DNA from: Bacillota bacterium | Lineage (GTDB): Bacteria; Bacillota; UBA4882; UBA8346 | Assembly: GCA_012735315.1 (NCBI GenBank) | Contig: JAAYHS010000021.1 | Span: forward strand, 1 to 40,697 | DNA: 40,697 bases | Direction: 5' to 3' | Part shown: positions 13,710 to 40,697 of the stretch, piece after piece | Position numbering within the stretch: the first letter of the stretch is position 1 | Layout: every line of letters starts with the position of its first letter | Program-made: the position numbers and the translations under genes | The notes under the pieces: generated by a model | The model's input: only the letters and a program-made list of their open reading frames with translations | What the model was told of the DNA's origin: nothing | The model's database searches: none

Positions 13710-15518
13710 ATGTTGAAAAAATTACCGGTAAATCTGGAAACATCCAGCGATTTTATACTTACTTCAAAGTTAAAGATGGTCCTTTATATGGTTACCATCA
13801 TGTTTTTAGTCTTTATCATCATGAATGTGGTTTTTTCCAAAATGTATTCGGAGAATGTTCGCGAAGTGGTTAAGCGGGAGTTTACCAACAAAGTGGAGCA
13901 AACTTGCCGTTATCTTGATTTGGTTATCGAAAAGGTCGAAACCACCTCTGAAATCATTTTTACCAACCAATTAGTTCAAGACCAAGCCTTGGAAAGTAGA
14001 AGCGATGATCCGGCGCAAGTTTTAAAGCGGAGGGATCTACTCTCTTTCTTACAGGGAATTGCTTTTACAACTGAGGAAGTAAACTCGATCGATTTATTTT
14101 TAAATAAGTCTCAAGTTTTGCTGCCTTCGGATCAAGGCGTTTATTCGGATTTAGACGAAGCGACAACCGATTGGTACCATCAATTACAAGAAACCGATGA
14201 AATTGTTTGGACGGATGATTATGGTCCGAAATTACAATTTTTAAGGGTTAGACCTCTAAATCAAATAACTATGGTCCGGCCGCTGGTTTCGGTCGTTACC
14301 TGGGAAAAAGTAGGATTAATCGCGATTAATTTGGAAAAGAGGGTAATCCAAGATTTATTAGCCGGCGATTCCGATACCAATAATATCCTGATTAATCAAT
14401 CCGGGAAAATAATAATTGCTTCTTTGAACTCTGATTATGATTACGGGGAAATTGCCGGGAACATTATGGAGATCAGAGAAGAGCTGAAAAAGGGGAAAAG
14501 TTTCGGCCGGATAAACGGGATTAACAGCGTATTCGTCGGTTTTCGATCATCATCCACCGGCTGGGAGTTAATCTCCTTCGCTCCGGTTCGACCTTCTTTA
14601 ATGAAAATTTCGCGCTTTCGGAATTACGTAATTTTATTTTTGCTGACAAATTTTATAATTTTATCACTCTTGATCCTTTTAATCTCAAAAAGAATGTTTG
14701 ATCCGGTGAACAAATTAATCAGCTTTATGAAAAAAGTAGAACAAGGAAATTTGAATGTGGTGATTGAAGATAATCGAAAAGATGAATTTGGATACATTTA
14801 TAGCAACTTTAACCGGATGGTGGCCAATATCAGATATTTATTTCAGGAATTGTATGAAGAAAAATTGTTGAAAAAGGATGCGGAGCTGAAATTATTACAA
14901 TCGAAGATTAACCCCCATTTTATTTATAATATTTTTAACAATATGAGCTGGCTGTTGGAACTGGGCAAGTATGATGACTTAGGCGAGATGATCGACTCCG
15001 TCGCAAAATTCCATAAAACCAGTCTGAACTATGGCAGCGATTTTATTAAGATTGCCGATAATGTGGAGCAGTTGAAGAGCTATGCCAAAATTCAGATGAT
15101 TCGTTTTAAAAATAAGTTTAGCTGTGAATTTGAGATCGATCAGCAAGTCTTGGAATATAAAATCCCGGTTTTTATTTTGCAACCTTTGTTGGAAAATGCT
15201 ATTTGTCATGGGATTGAGCCTAAAGAGGATTTCGGTTTCATCAAAGTAGCCATCAAGCAAAACAAGGGCAACTTGGTTTGTACTATTAAAGATAACGGCG
15301 TGGGAATCGCCAAGGGAAAATTAAACGAGATTCGCAAAAATATCGATGAAGAACTTGATGATAATAACCGTTTTTTTGCGCTTGCCAATGTTAATAAACG
15401 AATTAAATTGCATTACGGGCCGGAATACGGATTAAAGATAATCAGCAAAAAAGGCCTCGGAACCAAGGTTACGGTGATCATGCCTCTAGAGGAATTGGAG
15501 GGAAGAGCGAGTGTTTAA
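13710..15518 (+). CDS. Sensor histidine kinase, YesM type
   Basis: The 602-aa membrane kinase has one transmembrane helix at about 22-43, a large extracellular sensor region (about 44-305), a second helix at about 308-330, and a HAMP linker (about 332-385). The His_kinase domain contains the motif INPHFIYN with phospho-acceptor His403. The ATP-binding domain has LLENAICHG (N box) and DNGVGIAKG (G1). YesM-type kinases sense extracellular sugars, often together with LplABC-type transporters, and phosphorylate a YesN/AraC-type regulator. ATG at 13710 lies 6 nt after the pectate lyase stop with AAAGGG upstream. It overlaps the regulator gene by 8 nt, so the two are translationally coupled. The ligand is presumably a pectin fragment. 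Confidence 0.93.
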   Translation: MLKKLPVNLETSSDFILTSKLKMVLYMVTIMFLVFIIMNVVFSKMYSENVREVVKREFTNKVEQTCRYLDLVIEKVETTSEIIFTNQLVQDQALESRSDDPAQVLKRRDLLSFLQGIAFTTEEVNSIDLFLNKSQVLLPSDQGVYSDLDEATTDWYHQLQETDEIVWTDDYGPKLQFLRVRPLNQITMVRPLVSVVTWEKVGLIAINLEKRVIQDLLAGDSDTNNILINQSGKIIIASLNSDYDYGEIAGNIMEIREELKKGKSFGRINGINSVFVGFRSSSTGWELISFAPVRPSLMKISRFRNYVILFLLTNFIILSLLILLISKRMFDPVNKLISFMKKVEQGNLNVVIEDNRKDEFGYIYSNFNRMVANIRYLFQELYEEKLLKKDAELKLLQSKINPHFIYNIFNNMSWLLELGKYDDLGEMIDSVAKFHKTSLNYGSDFIKIADNVEQLKSYAKIQMIRFKNKFSCEFEIDQQVLEYKIPVFILQPLLENAICHGIEPKEDFGFIKVAIKQNKGNLVCTIKDNGVGIAKGKLNEIRKNIDEELDDNNRFFALANVNKRIKLHYGPEYGLKIISKKGLGTKVTVIMPLEELEGRASV

Positions 15519-17112
15519 ATTATTGATTGCCGATGATGAAGAAATTGTAATTGAGGGGATCAAATCGAGCATCAACTGGAGTGATTATGATATCGAAGTT
15601 GTCGGGACCGCTAAAAACGGATCCGAAGCTCTCAAATTGGCTCAAGAACTGAAACCGGATATCATCATCAGCGATATTAAGATGCCCGGCATCAACGGTT
15701 TGGAGCTAGTCGAAGAATTGAAAACTTTTTTACCGGATGTAAAAGTGATTTTGATCAGCGCTTACGAAGAGTTTGACTATGCAAAACAAGCGATCAGTCT
15801 AGGGGTGAATTCATTTCTTTCGAAACCGGTAAAAAAAGCGGAAGTGATCGATGAGGTTTGTAAAATTAAGACGATTTTAGAGAATGAAATTCATGAAAGG
15901 GAAACAGCCGAGCGGCTGCAACAGCGGTTTTTAGAAAATTTGCCGATTTTAAGGGAGCATTTTTTAAACTCTTTGATCATCGGGAACGTGGTAAACGATT
16001 TGGAGACAAAGCTTCAAACATACCGGATTGACCTTTCCCCATATAACACCGGGGTGATGATTTGTAAAATCAGTCGCGTCAATGACGGGGGCGAACGTCA
16101 AGAGCAACTGCTCCGGTTGAGAATTATCGATTTATTTATGGAAGGGACTCTGCCGCTGTTTAAAAGCATTACTTTTCAAAGCTATAATCAGGAGATCGTA
16201 ACCATTTTCAATGCTCCCGCCGGCGTTGATTCTCCGATTCAAGAAATTCTGCAAACGGCTGAAAAGATTAAGAATCGGATTTTGGAGGAGACGGGCGTCG
16301 GCGTTAGTATCGGCGTCGGTAGAATCTATGCGGAGTTAAAGGATATCGGGCTGGCTTACAAGGAAGCGGTCAAGGCTTTAAATTACCGGTTGGTTTATGG
16401 GGATGACAATGTGCTTTACATTGGGAATGTTGAAGATGTTGAAACCGATACCTATAGCATGTTGATCAATATCAATGAAATGCTTGATAATCTCCAAAAT
16501 ATTCTTTATACTGGGAAAATCGAAGAAGTTTACGGAATATTCGATAGTTTAACCAAGAGGTTGCAAAAAGCGGAAAAAATTCCCTATTACTATATTCAAC
16601 AATTATATGTGCAATTGTTATCGATAATTCTCCGGACTGCCACGGAAATCGGGATTGCGCCGCACCAGATCTCCGAAAATACCGATTTTTACGGAACTTT
16701 GCTTAAAATAAACAGTTCTTTCGAACTGGATGTGTGGATTAAAGAAATTTTAAAAAACGTCTGCGAACAGATTAATTATAAAAATCAGCTAAAAACGAAG
16801 CATTCAATCCAAAAGGCGATCAATTATATTCGGGAACATTGTCAGGAAGATATCTCCTTGACTTCGGTGGCGGAATATGTCCGGTTGAACCCCACCTATT
16901 TTAGCAGGTTTTTTAAAGAAGAGACCGGTTATTCTTTCGTGGAGTATCTTAAAAAGTTACGAATCGAAAAAGCCAAGGAGTTATTAAAAACGAGTAATTT
17001 GAAGATTTATGAGATCTGTGAAGCGTTGGGATATCAAAGCGTCCAGTATTTCTCAACTCTCTTTAAAAATATGGTGGGAGTAACGCCCCAAGAGTACCGG
17101 GAGAAAAGTTGA
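15511..17112 (+). CDS. AraC-family response regulator, YesN type
   Basis: The 533-aa regulator starts at GTG 15511 inside the end of the kinase gene. The receiver domain (1-120) has the acidic pair Asp8-Asp9, phospho-acceptor Asp55 (DIIISDIKMPG) and Lys104 region LSKP. A long middle region (about 140-410) follows, with a GGDEF-like degenerate segment (GVGVSIGVG) as seen in YesN relatives. The C terminus (about 430-533) is an AraC helix-turn-helix pair: a first helix with ISLTSVAEYVRLNPTYFSRFF and a second with YEICEALGYQSVQYFSTLFK. It probably activates the transporter and pectin genes upstream when phosphorylated. The strongest terminator after it is the bidirectional one at 17545-17573. Confidence 0.93.
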   Translation: MFKLLIADDEEIVIEGIKSSINWSDYDIEVVGTAKNGSEALKLAQELKPDIIISDIKMPGINGLELVEELKTFLPDVKVILISAYEEFDYAKQAISLGVNSFLSKPVKKAEVIDEVCKIKTILENEIHERETAERLQQRFLENLPILREHFLNSLIIGNVVNDLETKLQTYRIDLSPYNTGVMICKISRVNDGGERQEQLLRLRIIDLFMEGTLPLFKSITFQSYNQEIVTIFNAPAGVDSPIQEILQTAEKIKNRILEETGVGVSIGVGRIYAELKDIGLAYKEAVKALNYRLVYGDDNVLYIGNVEDVETDTYSMLININEMLDNLQNILYTGKIEEVYGIFDSLTKRLQKAEKIPYYYIQQLYVQLLSIILRTATEIGIAPHQISENTDFYGTLLKINSSFELDVWIKEILKNVCEQINYKNQLKTKHSIQKAINYIREHCQEDISLTSVAEYVRLNPTYFSRFFKEETGYSFVEYLKKLRIEKAKELLKTSNLKIYEICEALGYQSVQYFSTLFKNMVGVTPQEYREKS

Positions 17113-17180
17113 CCGTTCCGTGATGCTTCGAAGCTAATAATGGCAATTCTTTGCTAAAAAAGCCGAGTTAAAGCGGATCA

Positions 17181-17509
17181 ATCGCCTCACCCACGGAAGT
17201 TGATCGGTTATAAATTGAACACGTGTCCCCTCTCCCCGAAAGAAAGGTTATTTCGACTGCTGTGAGAGGGGACAATGATTGCTATTGCTTTTCGATACAT
17301 TTACACCACCGCGGATACTTATGCTATGTCGGTAACGAAGAACTCACTAATATTCCCAGTATCATTGCAAAGCTAAAGGCAGTTTTATAACAATAGCTCG
17401 TATAAAACATACTTCCCCTCTCACATCCTTCAAAATGGTCATATGTTACGGGAGAGGGGAGCTGCTCTCGATTTCGAACGGCAACAAGATTTGGGAGGGG
17501 TGAGGCGGT
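17181..17509. repeat. Nested inverted-repeat (foldback) element
   Basis: The outer arms ATCGCCTCACCC (17181-17192) and GGGTGAGGCGGT (17498-17509) pair over 12 positions with one G-U. Inside are two hairpin stems built from the same word. GTCCCCTCTC (17225-17234) pairs with GAGAGGGGAC (17264-17273). TTCCCCTCTC (17413-17422) pairs with GAGAGGGGAG (17452-17461). A 329-nt stretch thus folds into a closed stem with two similar side hairpins. A T6 run follows the right outer arm. No transposase, ORF or obvious target duplication is visible. It could be a MITE-like element, a REP-type repeat cluster, or a structured RNA. Confidence 0.65.
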
Positions 17510-17544
17510 TTTTTAAGTCCCCGGAGCGATTGGACGATTAATTA

Positions 17545-17632: not shown

Positions 17633-20600
17633 TTATTTAATACCGGCGTGATATTCTTGAATTGATTTGACATGAGCGGGGTTTTCGCGGAAAGCTGCGA
17701 TTCCCTTGGCCGTAGCCAAAGCGGCGGCAAGGGTTGTAATGTAGGGAACCTTGTATTTGATGGCGGTCTTGCGAATGTAGGAATCGTCCATCTGGCTGTG
17801 TTTTCCGATGGGCGTGTTTACGATCAAATTAATTTCCCGGTTCATGATGGCGTCGACGATATTCGGTCTGCCTTCCTGCAATTTATTGATTAATTCGGCT
17901 GGGATATTCCGTTCGGTCAAAAATTGATGAGTGCCGCGAGTCGCCTTAATTTTAAAGCCTAGTCCGGCAAAGATCCTGGCGATTTCCAAAACGGAGGCGT
18001 CTTTTTCGGCGATGCTCATTAAGACCGTTCCTCCGGTGGGGAGCGGCGTTTGGGTGGCTTCTTGAGCTTTGAAAAAGGCGCTTCCGAATGATTCGGCCAT
18101 TCCTAGAACCTCACCGGTGGAACGCATTTCCGGACCCAAAAGAGGGTCTACTTCGGGAAACATGTTAAAGGGAAAGACCGCTTCCTTAACTCCAAAATGG
18201 GTAATTTCGCGATCGGTCAAGTTTAAATCGCTAATTCTCTTGCCGAGCATAACTTGAGTGGCCAGATGGGCCATGGGTATTCCGCATACCTTGGAAACCA
18301 GCGGCACCGTTCGCGAAGCCCTGGGGTTGGCTTCCAAAACATATACTCGGTCGTCGCTGATGGCGTATTGGATGTTCATTAAGCCTATCACATGCAGTTC
18401 TTTGGCAATTTTTTGGGTATAATCCCGAATCGTTTTCAAGTGCCGTTCCTGAATGCTGACCGGAGGAATCACGCAAGCGGAGTCGCCGGAATGAATCCCG
18501 GCCAGTTCGATATGTTCCATTACCGCCGGAACAAAGGCGGCGGATCCGTCGGAAATGGCGTCGGCTTCGGCCTCCAAAGCATTATTCAGAAACCGGTCGA
18601 TCAAAATCGGGCGCTCCGGATTGATATCCACGGCGGCCGCCACATATTCACGGAGCATCATTTCGTCATAGACGATTTCCATGCCCCGGCCGCCCAGTAC
18701 ATAAGAAGGCCGGACCATTAAGGGATATCCGATTCGATCCGCGATTTGGAGAGCTTCATCCAGGTTGGCGGCCATTCCCGATTCCGGCATTGGAATCCCT
18801 AATTCAGCCATTATGCGGCGGAAACGGTCGCGATCTTCGGCCAAATCGATCATGTCGGTTGAGGTTCCTAAGATTTTAACCCCTGCCTTCGCAAGTTCCC
18901 CGGCGATATTCAAGGGAGTTTGGCCGCCGAATTGGACGATCACGCCCTCGGGGCGTTCCTTTTCGTAAATACTGAGCACATCTTCAACGGTAAGCGGTTC
19001 AAAATACAATTTATCGGCGGTGTCGTAATCGGTGGAGACGGTTTCCGGATTACAATTGACCATGATGGTTTCCAAACCGAGTTCGCGCAAGGCGAAGGCG
19101 GCATGAACGCAACAGTAATCGAATTCAATTCCTTGACCGATACGGTTGGGTCCTCCGCCAAGAATCATCACCTTCCGGCGGTTGCTGGTTGAGGTTCGAT
19201 CCGGTTGGTTGTAAGTCGAATAGTAATAAGCGGCGTTTTCGACCCCGCTGACCCGGATTTCATCCCAACCTTCGGTGATTCCTAAACTTAAGCGTTGTTT
19301 TCTAACGGTTTCTTCAGGGAAATTTAAGAGACGGGCTAAATAGCGGTCGGCAAAACCGTCTTTTTTGGCGCGGGCCAACAAGTCCTGGGGCAGGCTGCGG
19401 TTTTTATATTTTAAAATCTCTTCTTCCAGTTCAACCAGTTCTTTCATTTGCTGAATAAACCAAGGCTTGATATGAGTCAGCCGGTGCAACTCATCAATAG
19501 AGGCGCCTTTGCGCAGGGCTTCATACATTATGAATTGGCGTTCGCTAGTAGGTTCGCGGAGCATTTCCATCAGTTCCGCAAGGGATCTTTCATGAAAATC
19601 CTTTGCGAAGCCCAAGCCGTATCTTCCGATTTCCAGTGAGCGAATGGCTTTTTGGAAGGCTTCTTTATAATTCTTACCGATACTCATCACTTCTCCGACC
19701 GCGCGCATTTGAGTGCCGAGTTTATCTTGGACGCCCTTGAATTTTTCAAAAGCCCAGCGGGCGAATTTGACTACCACATAATCCGCGGACGGAGTATACT
19801 TGTCCAAAGTTCCGCTTTTCCAGTACGGTAACTCATCCAAGGTCATTCCCACCGCCAACATCGAAGAAACTAAGGCAATCGGAAATCCGGTCGCTTTAGA
19901 GGCAAGGGCTGAGGAACGCGAAGTTCGAGGATTGATTTCGATGATTACCACTCGATCCGTTTTGGGATCATGGGCGAATTGGACGTTGGTTCCGCCGATT
20001 ACTCCGATGGCTTCTACGATACGATAAGCATATTCTTGTAACCGCTTTTGGAGTTCGGGACTGATGGTCAACATCGGCGCGGTACAATAGGAGTCACCGG
20101 TATGAACCCCCATGGGATCGACATTTTCAATAAAGCAGACGGTAATCATGTTGTTTTTGGCGTCACGGACCACTTCCAGTTCCAGTTCTTCCCAACCCAA
20201 TACCGATTCTTCGACCAAGATTTGCCCGACCAGGCTGGCGGCAATTCCCCGGCCGGCGACGGTTTTCAGCTCTTCGACATTATAAACCAATCCTCCGCCG
20301 GTTCCTCCCAGAGTGTAAGCGGGACGAATTACCACCGGATAACCGAGTTCGGCGGCGATCTCGGCGGCTTCTTCCACGGTATAAGCGGGACGACTCTTGG
20401 GCATTTCAATCCCTAAACGGTTCATGGTTTCTTTAAAAGCGATGCGATCTTCGCCGCGCTGAATGGCCTCGATTTGGACGCCGATAACTTCAACGCCGTA
20501 TTTTTCAAGCACTCCGGCTTGGGCCAGTTCGGCGCAGAGGTTTAATCCGGTTTGGCCTCCCAGATTCGGGAGAATGGCGTCGGGTCTTTCTTTGGCTATT

Positions 20601-20830
20601 ATTTCGGTTATGTTTTTTAGATTAAGCGGTTCAATATAGGTGACATCGGCCATGCCCGGATCGGTCATAATCGTCGCCGGGTTTGAATTCACCAGTACCA
20701 CTTGGTACCCTAATTTTCGAAGAGCTTTGCATGCTTGGGTTCCGGAATAGTCAAACTCGCAGGCTTGACCGATAATGATCGGTCCGGAACCGATAATCAG
20801 TATTTTATTAAGGTCGGTTCTTTTGGGCAT
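17633..20830 (-). CDS. carB: Carbamoyl-phosphate synthase, large subunit
   Basis: A 1065-aa full-length large subunit that makes carbamoyl phosphate from bicarbonate, ammonia (from the small subunit) and two ATP, for pyrimidines and arginine. The N-terminal half (1-400) has the first ATP-grasp unit, with KILIIGSGPIIIGQACEFDYSG and GGTGGGLVYN. The oligomerisation domain (about 400-550) follows. The second ATP-grasp half (about 555-935) repeats the theme with MILGGGPNRIGQGIEFDYCC and LGGRGMEIV. The C-terminal MGS-like allosteric domain covers about 935-1065. The ATG at 20830 has GAGGAA upstream. The small subunit carA and other pyrimidine genes are not adjacent, although pyrG is 2.8 kb away on the other strand. 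Confidence 0.97.
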   Translation of the reverse strand: MPKRTDLNKILIIGSGPIIIGQACEFDYSGTQACKALRKLGYQVVLVNSNPATIMTDPGMADVTYIEPLNLKNITEIIAKERPDAILPNLGGQTGLNLCAELAQAGVLEKYGVEVIGVQIEAIQRGEDRIAFKETMNRLGIEMPKSRPAYTVEEAAEIAAELGYPVVIRPAYTLGGTGGGLVYNVEELKTVAGRGIAASLVGQILVEESVLGWEELELEVVRDAKNNMITVCFIENVDPMGVHTGDSYCTAPMLTISPELQKRLQEYAYRIVEAIGVIGGTNVQFAHDPKTDRVVIIEINPRTSRSSALASKATGFPIALVSSMLAVGMTLDELPYWKSGTLDKYTPSADYVVVKFARWAFEKFKGVQDKLGTQMRAVGEVMSIGKNYKEAFQKAIRSLEIGRYGLGFAKDFHERSLAELMEMLREPTSERQFIMYEALRKGASIDELHRLTHIKPWFIQQMKELVELEEEILKYKNRSLPQDLLARAKKDGFADRYLARLLNFPEETVRKQRLSLGITEGWDEIRVSGVENAAYYYSTYNQPDRTSTSNRRKVMILGGGPNRIGQGIEFDYCCVHAAFALRELGLETIMVNCNPETVSTDYDTADKLYFEPLTVEDVLSIYEKERPEGVIVQFGGQTPLNIAGELAKAGVKILGTSTDMIDLAEDRDRFRRIMAELGIPMPESGMAANLDEALQIADRIGYPLMVRPSYVLGGRGMEIVYDEMMLREYVAAAVDINPERPILIDRFLNNALEAEADAISDGSAAFVPAVMEHIELAGIHSGDSACVIPPVSIQERHLKTIRDYTQKIAKELHVIGLMNIQYAISDDRVYVLEANPRASRTVPLVSKVCGIPMAHLATQVMLGKRISDLNLTDREITHFGVKEAVFPFNMFPEVDPLLGPEMRSTGEVLGMAESFGSAFFKAQEATQTPLPTGGTVLMSIAEKDASVLEIARIFAGLGFKIKATRGTHQFLTERNIPAELINKLQEGRPNIVDAIMNREINLIVNTPIGKHSQMDDSYIRKTAIKYKVPYITTLAAALATAKGIAAFRENPAHVKSIQEYHAGIK

Positions 20831-40574: not shown

Positions 40575-40697
40575 GTACGCCCGGCATGGGCGTTGTCTAT
40601 AGGGTGGAAGTCCCGAACGGGGGCTGGCGAGCGCCTACCGTTAGCGGAAGGCAAGGGTGTTAACCGCGAGGTTAAATCTGAAGGAAGCCGGATGCAA
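40575..40697 (+). mobile_element. 5' end of a group IIC self-splicing intron (partial)
   Basis: From 40575 the sequence reads GTACGCCCGGCATGGGCG, then CTATAGGGTGGAAGTCCCGA, then GGCAAGGGTGTTAACCGCGA, then ATCTGAAGGAAGCCGG. This is the domain I opening of class IIC introns, matching the well-known Oceanobacillus iheyensis intron in order and wording. The 5' terminus is GTACG rather than the usual GTGYG. The reverse transcriptase ORF (domain IV) and the 3' end lie outside the window. IIC introns are known to insert next to terminator hairpins, and one is present at 40540-40570. Confidence 0.88.

What the first reader, a model, noticed from the sequence alone, without database searches (positions are those of the whole stretch)
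17181..17509. 329-nt nested inverted-repeat element between convergent genes
A 12-position outer inverted repeat encloses two hairpins built from the same TCCCCTCTC/GAGAGGGGA word, with no ORF, in a gap that needs no promoter. The arrangement is too regular to be chance. Words like this recall palindromic intergenic repeats seen in other genomes, but the nested design is unusual. It could be a non-autonomous mobile element, a protein-binding repeat cluster, or a structured RNA.
Basis: partly seen in the sequence, partly recalled or inferred. Interest (0 to 1): 0.55.

Follow-up and report, generated by a model that had tools for sequence, protein, structure and literature searches.

The report
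Gene-less copy of nuclease-linked palindromic repeat
The stretch is a dispersed, gene-less palindromic repeat, and repeats built on the same plan turn out to border a family of small DNA-cutting enzyme genes (DUF559) in several bacterial phyla, which suggests that those enzymes may spread such repeats.

Summary
In detail: a 13-nt outer inverted repeat (12 of 13 paired) encloses two perfect hairpins made from one TCCCCTCTC word, without a gene. It is one copy of a dispersed family: 12 matches in its own genome including self, 6 in a same-genus genome, 1 in another family. The two hairpins are inverted relatives, loops included, and half-units occur alone, so the family resembles REP singlets and REPIN doublets; no RAYT transposase was found beside it.

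Palindromes on the same plan, each with its own word, border stand-alone DUF559 nuclease genes. Stems of at least 9 bp lie within 200 nt in 20 of 20 loci of a Pseudomonadota draw and 18 of 29 of a Bacteroidota draw, against 5 of 30 HNH control loci. In 10 Bacteroidota loci DUF559 sits in frame inside long genes such as LeuRS, MetH or RecG. The plan there is arm-hairpin-DUF559-hairpin-arm; the window has a gene-less 139-nt spacer instead.

Best reading: an orphan, non-autonomous repeat of a DUF559-linked class. That DUF559 moves it is inferred. No DUF559 was found near this exact subfamily, and no target duplication.

The parts
17180..17192 (+). left outer arm ('tag') AATCGCCTCACCC
   Evidence: inverted repeat I2; conserved as CGCCTCACCC in other full-length copies
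17224..17274 (+). hairpin 1: 11-bp stem TGTCCCCTCTC/GAGAGGGGACA, 29-nt loop
   Evidence: I3; recurs in copies
17178..17296 (+). left half-unit (tag + spacer + hairpin 1 + about 22 nt); this unit occurs alone elsewhere
   Evidence: half copies matching about query 22-153 of 17150-17540: L019, L021, L022, L006; further L013, L014, L020, L024
17275..17413 (.). 139-nt gene-less spacer between the hairpins (the place where the DUF559 gene lies in DUF559-bearing relatives of the same plan)
   Evidence: a DUF559 remnant was tested for and not found
17414..17460 (+). hairpin 2: 9-bp stem TCCCCTCTC/GAGAGGGGA, 29-nt loop; inverted relative of hairpin 1
   Evidence: I4; loops alone, inverted: 8 of 1000 shuffles as good in the window copy, 0, 0 and 2 of 1000 in three other copies
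17498..17510 (+). right outer arm GGGTGAGGCGGTT
   Evidence: I2; recurs as GGGTGAGGCG in L010, L012, L015
15511..17112 (+). flanking response-regulator-like gene (context, not part)
   Evidence: ORF list; name by reading
17633..20830 (-). flanking carB-like gene (context, not part); the same-genus relative has no such element behind its carB
   Evidence: G001 C94

Best explanation
The element is an orphan, non-autonomous doublet of a palindromic repeat family. One unit is a CTCACCC tag plus a pyrimidine/purine-word hairpin; two units in inverted orientation make the nested figure. The class to which this architecture belongs is physically linked to DUF559, a small Vsr-like nuclease: in DUF559-bearing copies the nuclease gene lies between hairpins (arm-hairpin-DUF559-hairpin-arm), and such units sit between genes or in frame inside genes. 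I infer that the hairpins fold in single-stranded DNA, that a cognate DUF559 enzyme cuts at or beside them, and that repair or copying inserts the unit elsewhere; gene-less doublets and single half-units are carried along in trans. Shown: dispersal, inverted-unit anatomy, DUF559-palindrome linkage in at least three phyla, DUF559 units in frame inside other genes. Inferred: that DUF559 is the mobilising enzyme, the cutting step, and that the window's own subfamily once had such a partner.
For: Dispersed copies: 12 matches in the own genome, 6 in G001 and 1 in G017. Hairpin pattern CCCTCTC-N18..46-GAGAGGG: 25 in G000, 16 in G001, 15 in G007, reversed-pattern control 0, 0 and 1. Hairpin 1 resembles the reverse complement of hairpin 2 also in the loops (whole halves). 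The own genome's only DUF559 match (C24, Pfam E 1e-33) is bordered by a nested unit with CAACCCTC...GAGGGTTG arms whose second hairpin recurs in G000, G001 and G008. Palindromes at DUF559: 34 of 40 flanks within 200 nt versus 18 of 160 at 600-1400 nt in a Pseudomonadota draw; 23 of 55 versus 23 of 213 in a Bacteroidota draw; HNH control 5 of 30 loci. Upstream and downstream flanks of one DUF559 gene share an inverted word of 12 nt or more in 5/26, 12/20 and 18/26 loci, against 0/78, 9/60 and 6/78 with flanks of other loci. DUF559-side repeats also occur away from the gene: the L154 unit has 12 matches in G003, 7 of them on other contigs; the L125 stretch recurs in 8 of 15 G007 loci compared, at 78-83% over their main stretches, and those loci show no DUF559. 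DUF559 in frame inside LeuRS, MetH, RecG, HsdR, HsdM and others. The profile of DUF559 proteins matches a solved 'Mobile intron protein' (3r3p, E 1.3e-6) and an 'Endonuclease-Like Protein' (3hrl, 3e-33).
Against: No DUF559 gene was found in the fetched stretches (about 2 to 10 kb each) around copies of the window's own CGCCTCACCC subfamily: a 60-protein profile gave nothing above 7.5 bits in their six frames. A DUF559 remnant in the window spacer was proposed and not supported. No consistent target duplication in 7 copies. Weak DUF559-like proteins also have stems within 200 nt in 10 of 18 loci, and Y1_Tnp genes in 5 of 12, so part of the stem signal may be ordinary terminators or other hairpins; the tag words separate them (0 of 18, 0 of 12), but the tag is also missing from most Bacteroidota loci (present in 5 of 29). 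The stem-word contrast with HNH is modest (13 of 29 against 5 of 30, p 0.025). Of ten further DUF559 loci printed, six (L155, L156, L157, L160, L161, L168; mostly partial or weak matches) showed no obvious palindromes by eye. No enzymatic or mobility experiment exists here.
Confidence: 0.5

Rival explanations
1. The palindromes are an independent repeat family (spread by an unknown enzyme or by replication errors) and serve as landing or cutting sites for DUF559 elements, which behave like homing endonucleases; the window copy is simply an unoccupied site.
For: Explains the adjacency and why subfamilies without a DUF559 exist. DUF559 is related in sequence to a mobile-intron protein. Nested units without a gene lie in tandem beside the gene (L154, L159).
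Against: DUF559 loci carry their own word on both sides: flank-to-flank inverted identity is well above pairing with other loci, as expected of element ends. DUF559 insertions within LeuRS or MetH carry palindromes with them.
Confidence: 0.22
2. A classical MITE: terminal inverted repeats recognised by an unidentified transposase encoded elsewhere.
For: 13-nt terminal inverted repeat, no gene, 270-330 nt, dispersed.
Against: No consistent target duplication in 7 copies. Two inverted hairpin units and solo half-units are not MITE-like. 12 Y1_Tnp loci of relatives lack the tag and stem words within 200 nt (0 of 12). No parent transposon was noticed, although DDE transposases were not searched systematically.
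Confidence: 0.13
3. A structural or regulatory DNA element: an intrastrand-triplex (PIT/TM-like) motif, transcription terminator or protein-binding repeat kept for its effect on neighbouring genes.
For: Same stem and tag words as the GC-rich triplex motif (PMC4666352); position between convergent genes.
Against: 31 and 37 nt separate the stems from the tags and the loops are 29 nt, so the described triplex cannot form directly. The carB side has its own terminator-like inverted repeat, and no T-run follows hairpin 2. The same-genus relative has no element behind carB.
Confidence: 0.08
4. A structured non-coding RNA.
For: Stable fold, z -3.18 with DNA parameters; paired changes in inner stem positions between subfamilies.
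Against: No Rfam match; DNA-level constraints give the same pattern; loops and spacers are poorly conserved between subfamilies.
Confidence: 0.03

Closest known systems
REP/REPIN elements with RAYT (TnpA-REP) transposases
   Same: Dispersed palindromic singlets and inverted doublets; non-autonomous; in the class, an enzyme gene is flanked by the same palindromes.
   Different: No RAYT was found beside copies (the own genome's one Y1_Tnp has no such hairpin or tag in its locus). No GTAG/CTAC within 6 nt of the hairpins of six copies. Loops are 29 nt and the doublet 270-330 nt. The linked enzyme is DUF559, a PD-(D/E)XK/Vsr-like nuclease, not a Y1 transposase.
GC-rich intrastrand triplex motif TM / PIT elements (Holder et al. 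2015, PMC4666352; Hoyne et al. as cited there)
   Same: Stem word CCCTCTCCC/GGGAGAGGG, tag GGTGAGGG, and inverted pairs (5 in E. coli K-12).
   Different: There the tag lies about 3 nt from the stem and loops are about 3-5 nt, 34-37 nt in all (table seen). The authors report no association of the E. coli motif with mobile elements (section 18), and their text does not contain 'DUF559' or 'endonuclease'.
TIRYT elements (Di Nocera group 2013, PMC3733652)
   Same: Ends with a GGGGWSAS motif (GGGGTGAG fits it).
   Different: Those ends flank tyrosine transposases; 0 of 12 Y1_Tnp loci here have the tag within 200 nt. Passages read only.
DUF559 / VsrA-type nucleases (Caulobacter, PMC12907096; PDB 3hrl)
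   Same: The enzyme family that borders repeats of this plan.
   Different: The paper's passages describe a Vsr-like endonuclease; 'palindrom' does not occur in its main text.
Rickettsia palindromic elements (RPE)
   Same: Palindromic units inserted in frame in protein genes (recalled; named in passages of PMC3733652).
   Different: No nuclease partner is mentioned in the passages read.

Membership tests
REP/REPIN-RAYT | RAYT (Y1_Tnp) gene flanked by the repeat | tested here: not met
   own genome has one Y1_Tnp (C17); no such hairpin or tag in its locus; 0 of 12 Y1 loci of relatives with tag or stem words within 200 nt (2 further matches at contig edges left out)
REP/REPIN-RAYT | inverted doublets of a palindromic unit, plus singlets | tested here: met
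REP/REPIN-RAYT | GTAG-type terminal tag | tested here: not met
   no GTAG/CTAC within 6 nt of the hairpins found in six full-length copies
PIT/TM intrastrand triplex motif | CCCTCTCCC/GGGAGAGGG stem followed within a few nt by a GGGTGAGGG third strand | tested here: not met
   37-nt gap from hairpin 2 to the right arm and 29-nt loop in the window against the motifs listed in PMC4666352
MITE of a DDE transposon | terminal inverted repeats | tested here: met
   13 nt, 12 paired
MITE of a DDE transposon | target-site duplication | tested here: not met
   no consistent duplication in 7 copies; ageing of copies could hide it
MITE of a DDE transposon | autonomous parent with the same ends | tested here: inconclusive
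   none noticed in the loci; no systematic transposase search
DUF559-linked nested palindromes (class proposed here) | arm-hairpin ... hairpin-arm architecture with a shared word | tested here: met
   same plan at DUF559 loci L154 and L159, and at L127 with one imperfect hairpin
DUF559-linked nested palindromes (class proposed here) | a DUF559 gene in or beside a copy of the same subfamily | tested here: not met
   none in the fetched loci of the window subfamily; met for other subfamilies in the same genome and in relatives
structured RNA family | match to a covariance model | tested here: not met
   no Rfam match at gathering score in the element

The most novel reading that the evidence does not exclude
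DUF559 nucleases are the enzymes of a minimal mobile element found in several bacterial phyla: tag-hairpin-nuclease-hairpin-tag, able to insert in frame even into LeuRS, MetH or RecG. Gene-less doublets such as the window element, and the 'orphan' PIT/TM palindromes of E. coli and other bacteria, are its non-autonomous offspring, each family recognised through its own hairpin word.
Probability: 0.4. Interest if true: 0.85.

Novelty: new variant of a known kind. Interest (0 to 1): 0.6.

Why it matters
Many bacteria carry palindromic intergenic repeats for which no mobilising enzyme is known; PMC3733652 says so for its CGTC repeats, and PMC4666352 found no mobile partner for the E. coli triplex motif. 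A statistical and structural link to DUF559, a small nuclease still filed in Pfam as a protein of unknown function, gives such orphan repeats a candidate enzyme, gives DUF559 a candidate job, and makes both testable in culturable hosts. If right, palindromes bearing CCCTCTCC/GGAGAGGG words in genome annotations could be read as footprints of one element class.

Tried and rejected
Rejected: (1) the window spacer as a decayed DUF559 C-terminus; a 60-protein profile gave no match there, and the best scores elsewhere in the 18604 six-frame peptides were 7.5 bits. (2) RAYT as partner. (3) Left-half copies as ends of a larger autonomous element: by my reading their neighbours are Rhs-like, IS and unrelated ORFs. 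(4) Plasmid and viral-contig carriage: no match in plasmids by blastn, 0 loci of the tag-hairpin pattern in viral contigs; the phage collection was not searched. (5) A clean empty site at carB of G001: the element is absent, but the neighbour differs, so no exact empty site. (6) Literature: searches listed no paper that by title or abstract links DUF559 with palindromic repeats (open-licence PMC papers only). Of the 14 papers holding 'DUF559' I opened one (passages); the other 13 were seen only in the listing. One search was the RAYT/REPIN search. One paper search was left unused.

Weak points of the statistics. The 16 genomes were chosen because they carry the pattern, so that set is biased. 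The Bacteroidota and Pseudomonadota draws were not chosen for it; their anchor genomes G064 and G066 were, and their loci were left out of those two sets. Only loci for which the tool returned DNA (one per genome, strongest match) were used: 29 of the 87 matches of 78 bits or more (3 of the 87 in G064), and 20 of the 54 matches of 84 bits or more (6 of the 54 in G066); nine weak loci were not counted. From, 24 loci were used and six weak ones (L183, L191, L192, L197-L199) left out. From, six strong loci plus L154 and L159 were used, 18 weak ones counted apart; other partial or weak matches were not. Of the ten loci printed, only L154 and L159 entered the counts; L158 and L169 also showed palindromes by eye, six did not. 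could use 26 of 29, 20 of 20 and 26 of 32 loci (flanks of 250 nt needed). Its HNH set gave 0 of 29 for own flanks, 18 of 87 for flanks of other loci (probably because these genes are orthologous and strands were not aligned) and 1 of 29 far away, so the HNH set is not an ideal match. Gene edges are those of the Pfam domain. Stems with loops under 3 nt are not counted, which misses the 2-nt-loop hairpins of L127. L126 (internal stop) was left out of the profile (60 of 61 domains). In one search the shuffles destroy the stem word, which inflates the contrast; one search repeats the test on the loops alone (four of six copies testable).

Full report
WHAT IS THERE. Between two convergent genes (response-regulator-like, 15511-17112 +; carB-like, 17633-20830 -) lies a 331-nt element at 17180-17510. 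Its outer arms (AATCGCCTCACCC / GGGTGAGGCGGTT, 12 of 13 paired) enclose hairpin 1 (17224-17274, 11-bp perfect stem) and hairpin 2 (17414-17460, 9-bp perfect stem), both with 29-nt loops and the same TCCCCTCTC/GAGAGGGGA word. The longest stop-to-stop frame inside is 61 aa. As single-stranded DNA it folds at -46.9 kcal/mol, z -3.18, with 0 of 100 shuffles as stable. No Rfam family matches it; the window's only Rfam hit is a group II intron fragment at its far end.

IT IS A DISPERSED REPEAT. In the own genome (2.95 Mb, 216 contigs) 12 matches including self were found, at 11 places. Among 61 genomes searched, 3 have matches: the own genome, the one same-genus genome (6 matches) and one genome of another family of the class (1 match). 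The same-genus genome is the MAG 'Bacillota bacterium AS06rmzACSIP_96', as record names and contig lengths show. The bare hairpin pattern occurs 25 times in the own genome, 16 in the same-genus genome and 15 in a third genome of the family, with 0, 0 and 1 for the reversed pattern; 13 of 31 genomes have it at all, several with one or two unrelated-looking hits. Full-length copies are 273-286 nt in five other places. Several copies are half-units only: tag, hairpin 1 and about 22 nt.

ANATOMY: TWO INVERTED UNITS. Aligning the left half of a copy with the reverse complement of its right half gives scores that 0 or 1 of 500 shuffles reach in each of six copies; in five of them the match runs through a hairpin, in the L051 copy it is the outer arm. 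Those shuffles break the stem word, so I repeated the test on loops alone: in the four copies testable by that script, 8, 0, 0 and 2 of 1000 shuffles match the inverted partner as well (window, L016, L023, L025), while the direct orientation scores like shuffles. The nested figure is therefore a doublet of one tag+hairpin unit, as a REPIN is a doublet of REPs. The first stem position beyond the searched word pairs in 14 of 20 hairpin clusters (shuffled mean 9.0; 15 of 2000 shuffles reach 14), with C-G and T-A there and four pair types at the next position: modest evidence that the stem is kept as a stem.

SAME PLAN, OTHER WORDS, AND A NUCLEASE. A pattern scan of named genomes gave 24 loci. Seven are in the same-genus MAG. 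Of the other 17, three in Chloroflexota (L100, L101, L122) show the identical nested plan; some of the rest look like looser, GC-rich matches. Two loci (L104 Mucilaginibacter, L107 Sphingosinicella) abut an ORF that I read as DUF559, which led to a test of Pfam PF04480; both genomes have it. In relatives, stand-alone DUF559 genes with strong matches often sit among palindromes: 6 of 8 by stem count. The own genome's one match (C24, 119 aa, Pfam E 1e-33) lies beside a nested unit with CAACCCTC...GAGGGTTG arms, its second hairpin perfect and its first imperfect. That second hairpin recurs: 4 matches in G000 (2 at the gene itself, 2 on another contig), 9 in G001, 5 in G008, 1 in G003. In G003 a DUF559 gene lies among copies of a 129-nt nested unit that has 12 matches in that genome, 5 at the gene and 7 elsewhere, plus 2 in G006 and 1 in G000. 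The palindromic stretch beside the G006 gene recurs in 8 of 15 G007 loci compared, at 78-83% over their main stretches; those loci show no DUF559. In G007 itself a DUF559 fragment at a contig edge follows three tandem nested units.

NUMBERS. Perfect stems of at least 9 bp with loops of 3-60 nt were counted by distance from the DUF559 domain. Pseudomonadota draw (100 genomes; 20 loci): 34 of 40 flanks within 200 nt, 18 of 160 at 600-1400 nt, Fisher p 2.8e-19; 20 of 20 loci on at least one side, 14 on both. Bacteroidota draw (99 genomes; 29 loci): 23 of 55 against 23 of 213, p 6.0e-7; 18 of 29 loci. HNH loci of the same draw: 5 of 30, p 4.8e-4 against DUF559. Stem words within 200 nt: 13 of 29 against 5 of 30 (p 0.025); tags 5 of 29 against 0 of 30. 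Y1_Tnp of relatives: 5 of 12 with stems, but 0 of 12 with the tag or the stem words. Weak DUF559-like proteins: 10 of 18 with stems, 2 of 18 with the stem words, 0 of 18 with the tag. Bacillota family and class loci: 6 of 8. Genomes chosen for the pattern: 19 of 24, a biased set (all). Upstream and downstream flanks share an inverted word of 12 nt or more in 5 of 26, 12 of 20 and 18 of 26 loci (Bacteroidota; Pseudomonadota), against 0 of 78, 9 of 60 and 6 of 78 when flanks of different loci are paired, and 0 of 24, 0 of 20 and 0 of 21 for stretches 750-1000 nt away.

DUF559 IN FRAME INSIDE GENES. Ten loci of the Bacteroidota set carry DUF559 inside frames of more than 400 aa. Pfam places it inside LeuRS (three loci), MetH (two, both between the two B12-binding domains), RecG, HsdR, HsdM, an MmeI-like methylase (weak match) and an M23 peptidase. 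By eye, palindromic words border it on both sides in nine of the ten (in L200 the left side is weak), with outer inverted repeats visible in, for example, L202, L207, L218 and L220. This is arm-hairpin-DUF559-hairpin-arm: the window architecture with a gene in place of the 139-nt spacer. Such cases speak for insertion of DUF559 units into genes; they do not by themselves show which enzyme does it.

MECHANISM. A profile of eight DUF559 proteins matches the solved 'Endonuclease-Like Protein' 3hrl (3e-33), the 'Mobile intron protein' 3r3p (1.3e-6; a homing endonuclease, recalled) and, more weakly, PvuRts1 I (3e-5). PMC12907096 (passages) describes a Caulobacter DUF559 protein as PD-(D/E)XK, Vsr-like. 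I infer a nuclease that recognises its own hairpin in single-stranded or cruciform DNA, with repair-driven copying; gene-less doublets follow in trans. Cutting, trans-mobilisation and the direction of copying are not shown.

AGAINST. No DUF559 was found in the fetched stretches around the window's CGCCTCACCC subfamily, nor a trace of one in its spacer. Flanks of seven copies show no consistent duplication. The window copy is best called an orphan, its partner lost or never adjacent. A landing-site model (rival 1) is close behind.

KNOWN RELATIVES. The stem and tag words equal those of the GC-rich intrastrand triplex motif found in more than 260 genomes (PMC4666352: abstract, section 18 and passages read), five pairs of which lie inverted in E. 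coli K-12. Its authors found no association of the E. coli motif with mobile elements, and the words 'DUF559' and 'endonuclease' do not occur in it. The window element fails the strict definition, since stem and tag are 31-37 nt apart. PMC3733652 (passages) describes REP and TIRYT families and says its CGTC repeats lack a dedicated transposase. Paper searches linking DUF559 or Vsr-like enzymes with palindromes listed nothing relevant by title or abstract; only open-licence PMC papers were searched.

VERDICT. The finding itself is an ordinary member of a dispersed palindromic family. The link of this kind of repeat to DUF559, not found in the papers searched, is the reason for the score.

Noticed in passing
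window 40660-40697: Start of a group II intron (Rfam group-II-D1D4-3, 33.2 bits, cut by the window end).
   Followed up: no
L063 3070-3187 (G000 C212) and L024 1501-1658 (G001 C95): Group II intron domains (RF00029) directly adjoin hairpins of this repeat class, as if the palindromes were intron target sites.
   Followed up: partly
L200, L218, L221 (LeuRS), L210, L215 (MetH), L224 (RecG), L202, L207, L201, L220: DUF559 domains in frame inside long conserved genes in the Bacteroidota draw; two separate genomes have it between the two B12-binding domains of MetH.
   Followed up: partly
L129 (G001 C69, 1-1000): DUF559 gene beside four or five tandem palindromic units, next to what looks like a CRISPR array (repeat GTTTCAATCCACGCTCCTACACGAGGAGCGAC, read by eye).
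   Followed up: no
L020 (G017 C53) and L024 (G001 C95): Half-unit copies in genomes of two families share the same downstream ORF (METPVLKDK...), suggesting horizontal transfer of the stretch.
   Followed up: no
loops of the hairpins, e.g. window 17235-17263 and 17423-17451: Loops of different subfamilies often carry a TCRRAA-like word (TTCAAAA, GTCGAAA, CTCAGAA; read by eye), which could be a recognition word.
   Followed up: no
L011 about 2250-2345, L017 about 1830-1920, L018 about 1030-1160: A second dispersed repeat (CGAAGCATCACGGAGC...AACCCGCGGC type, by eye) lies beside several copies.
   Followed up: no
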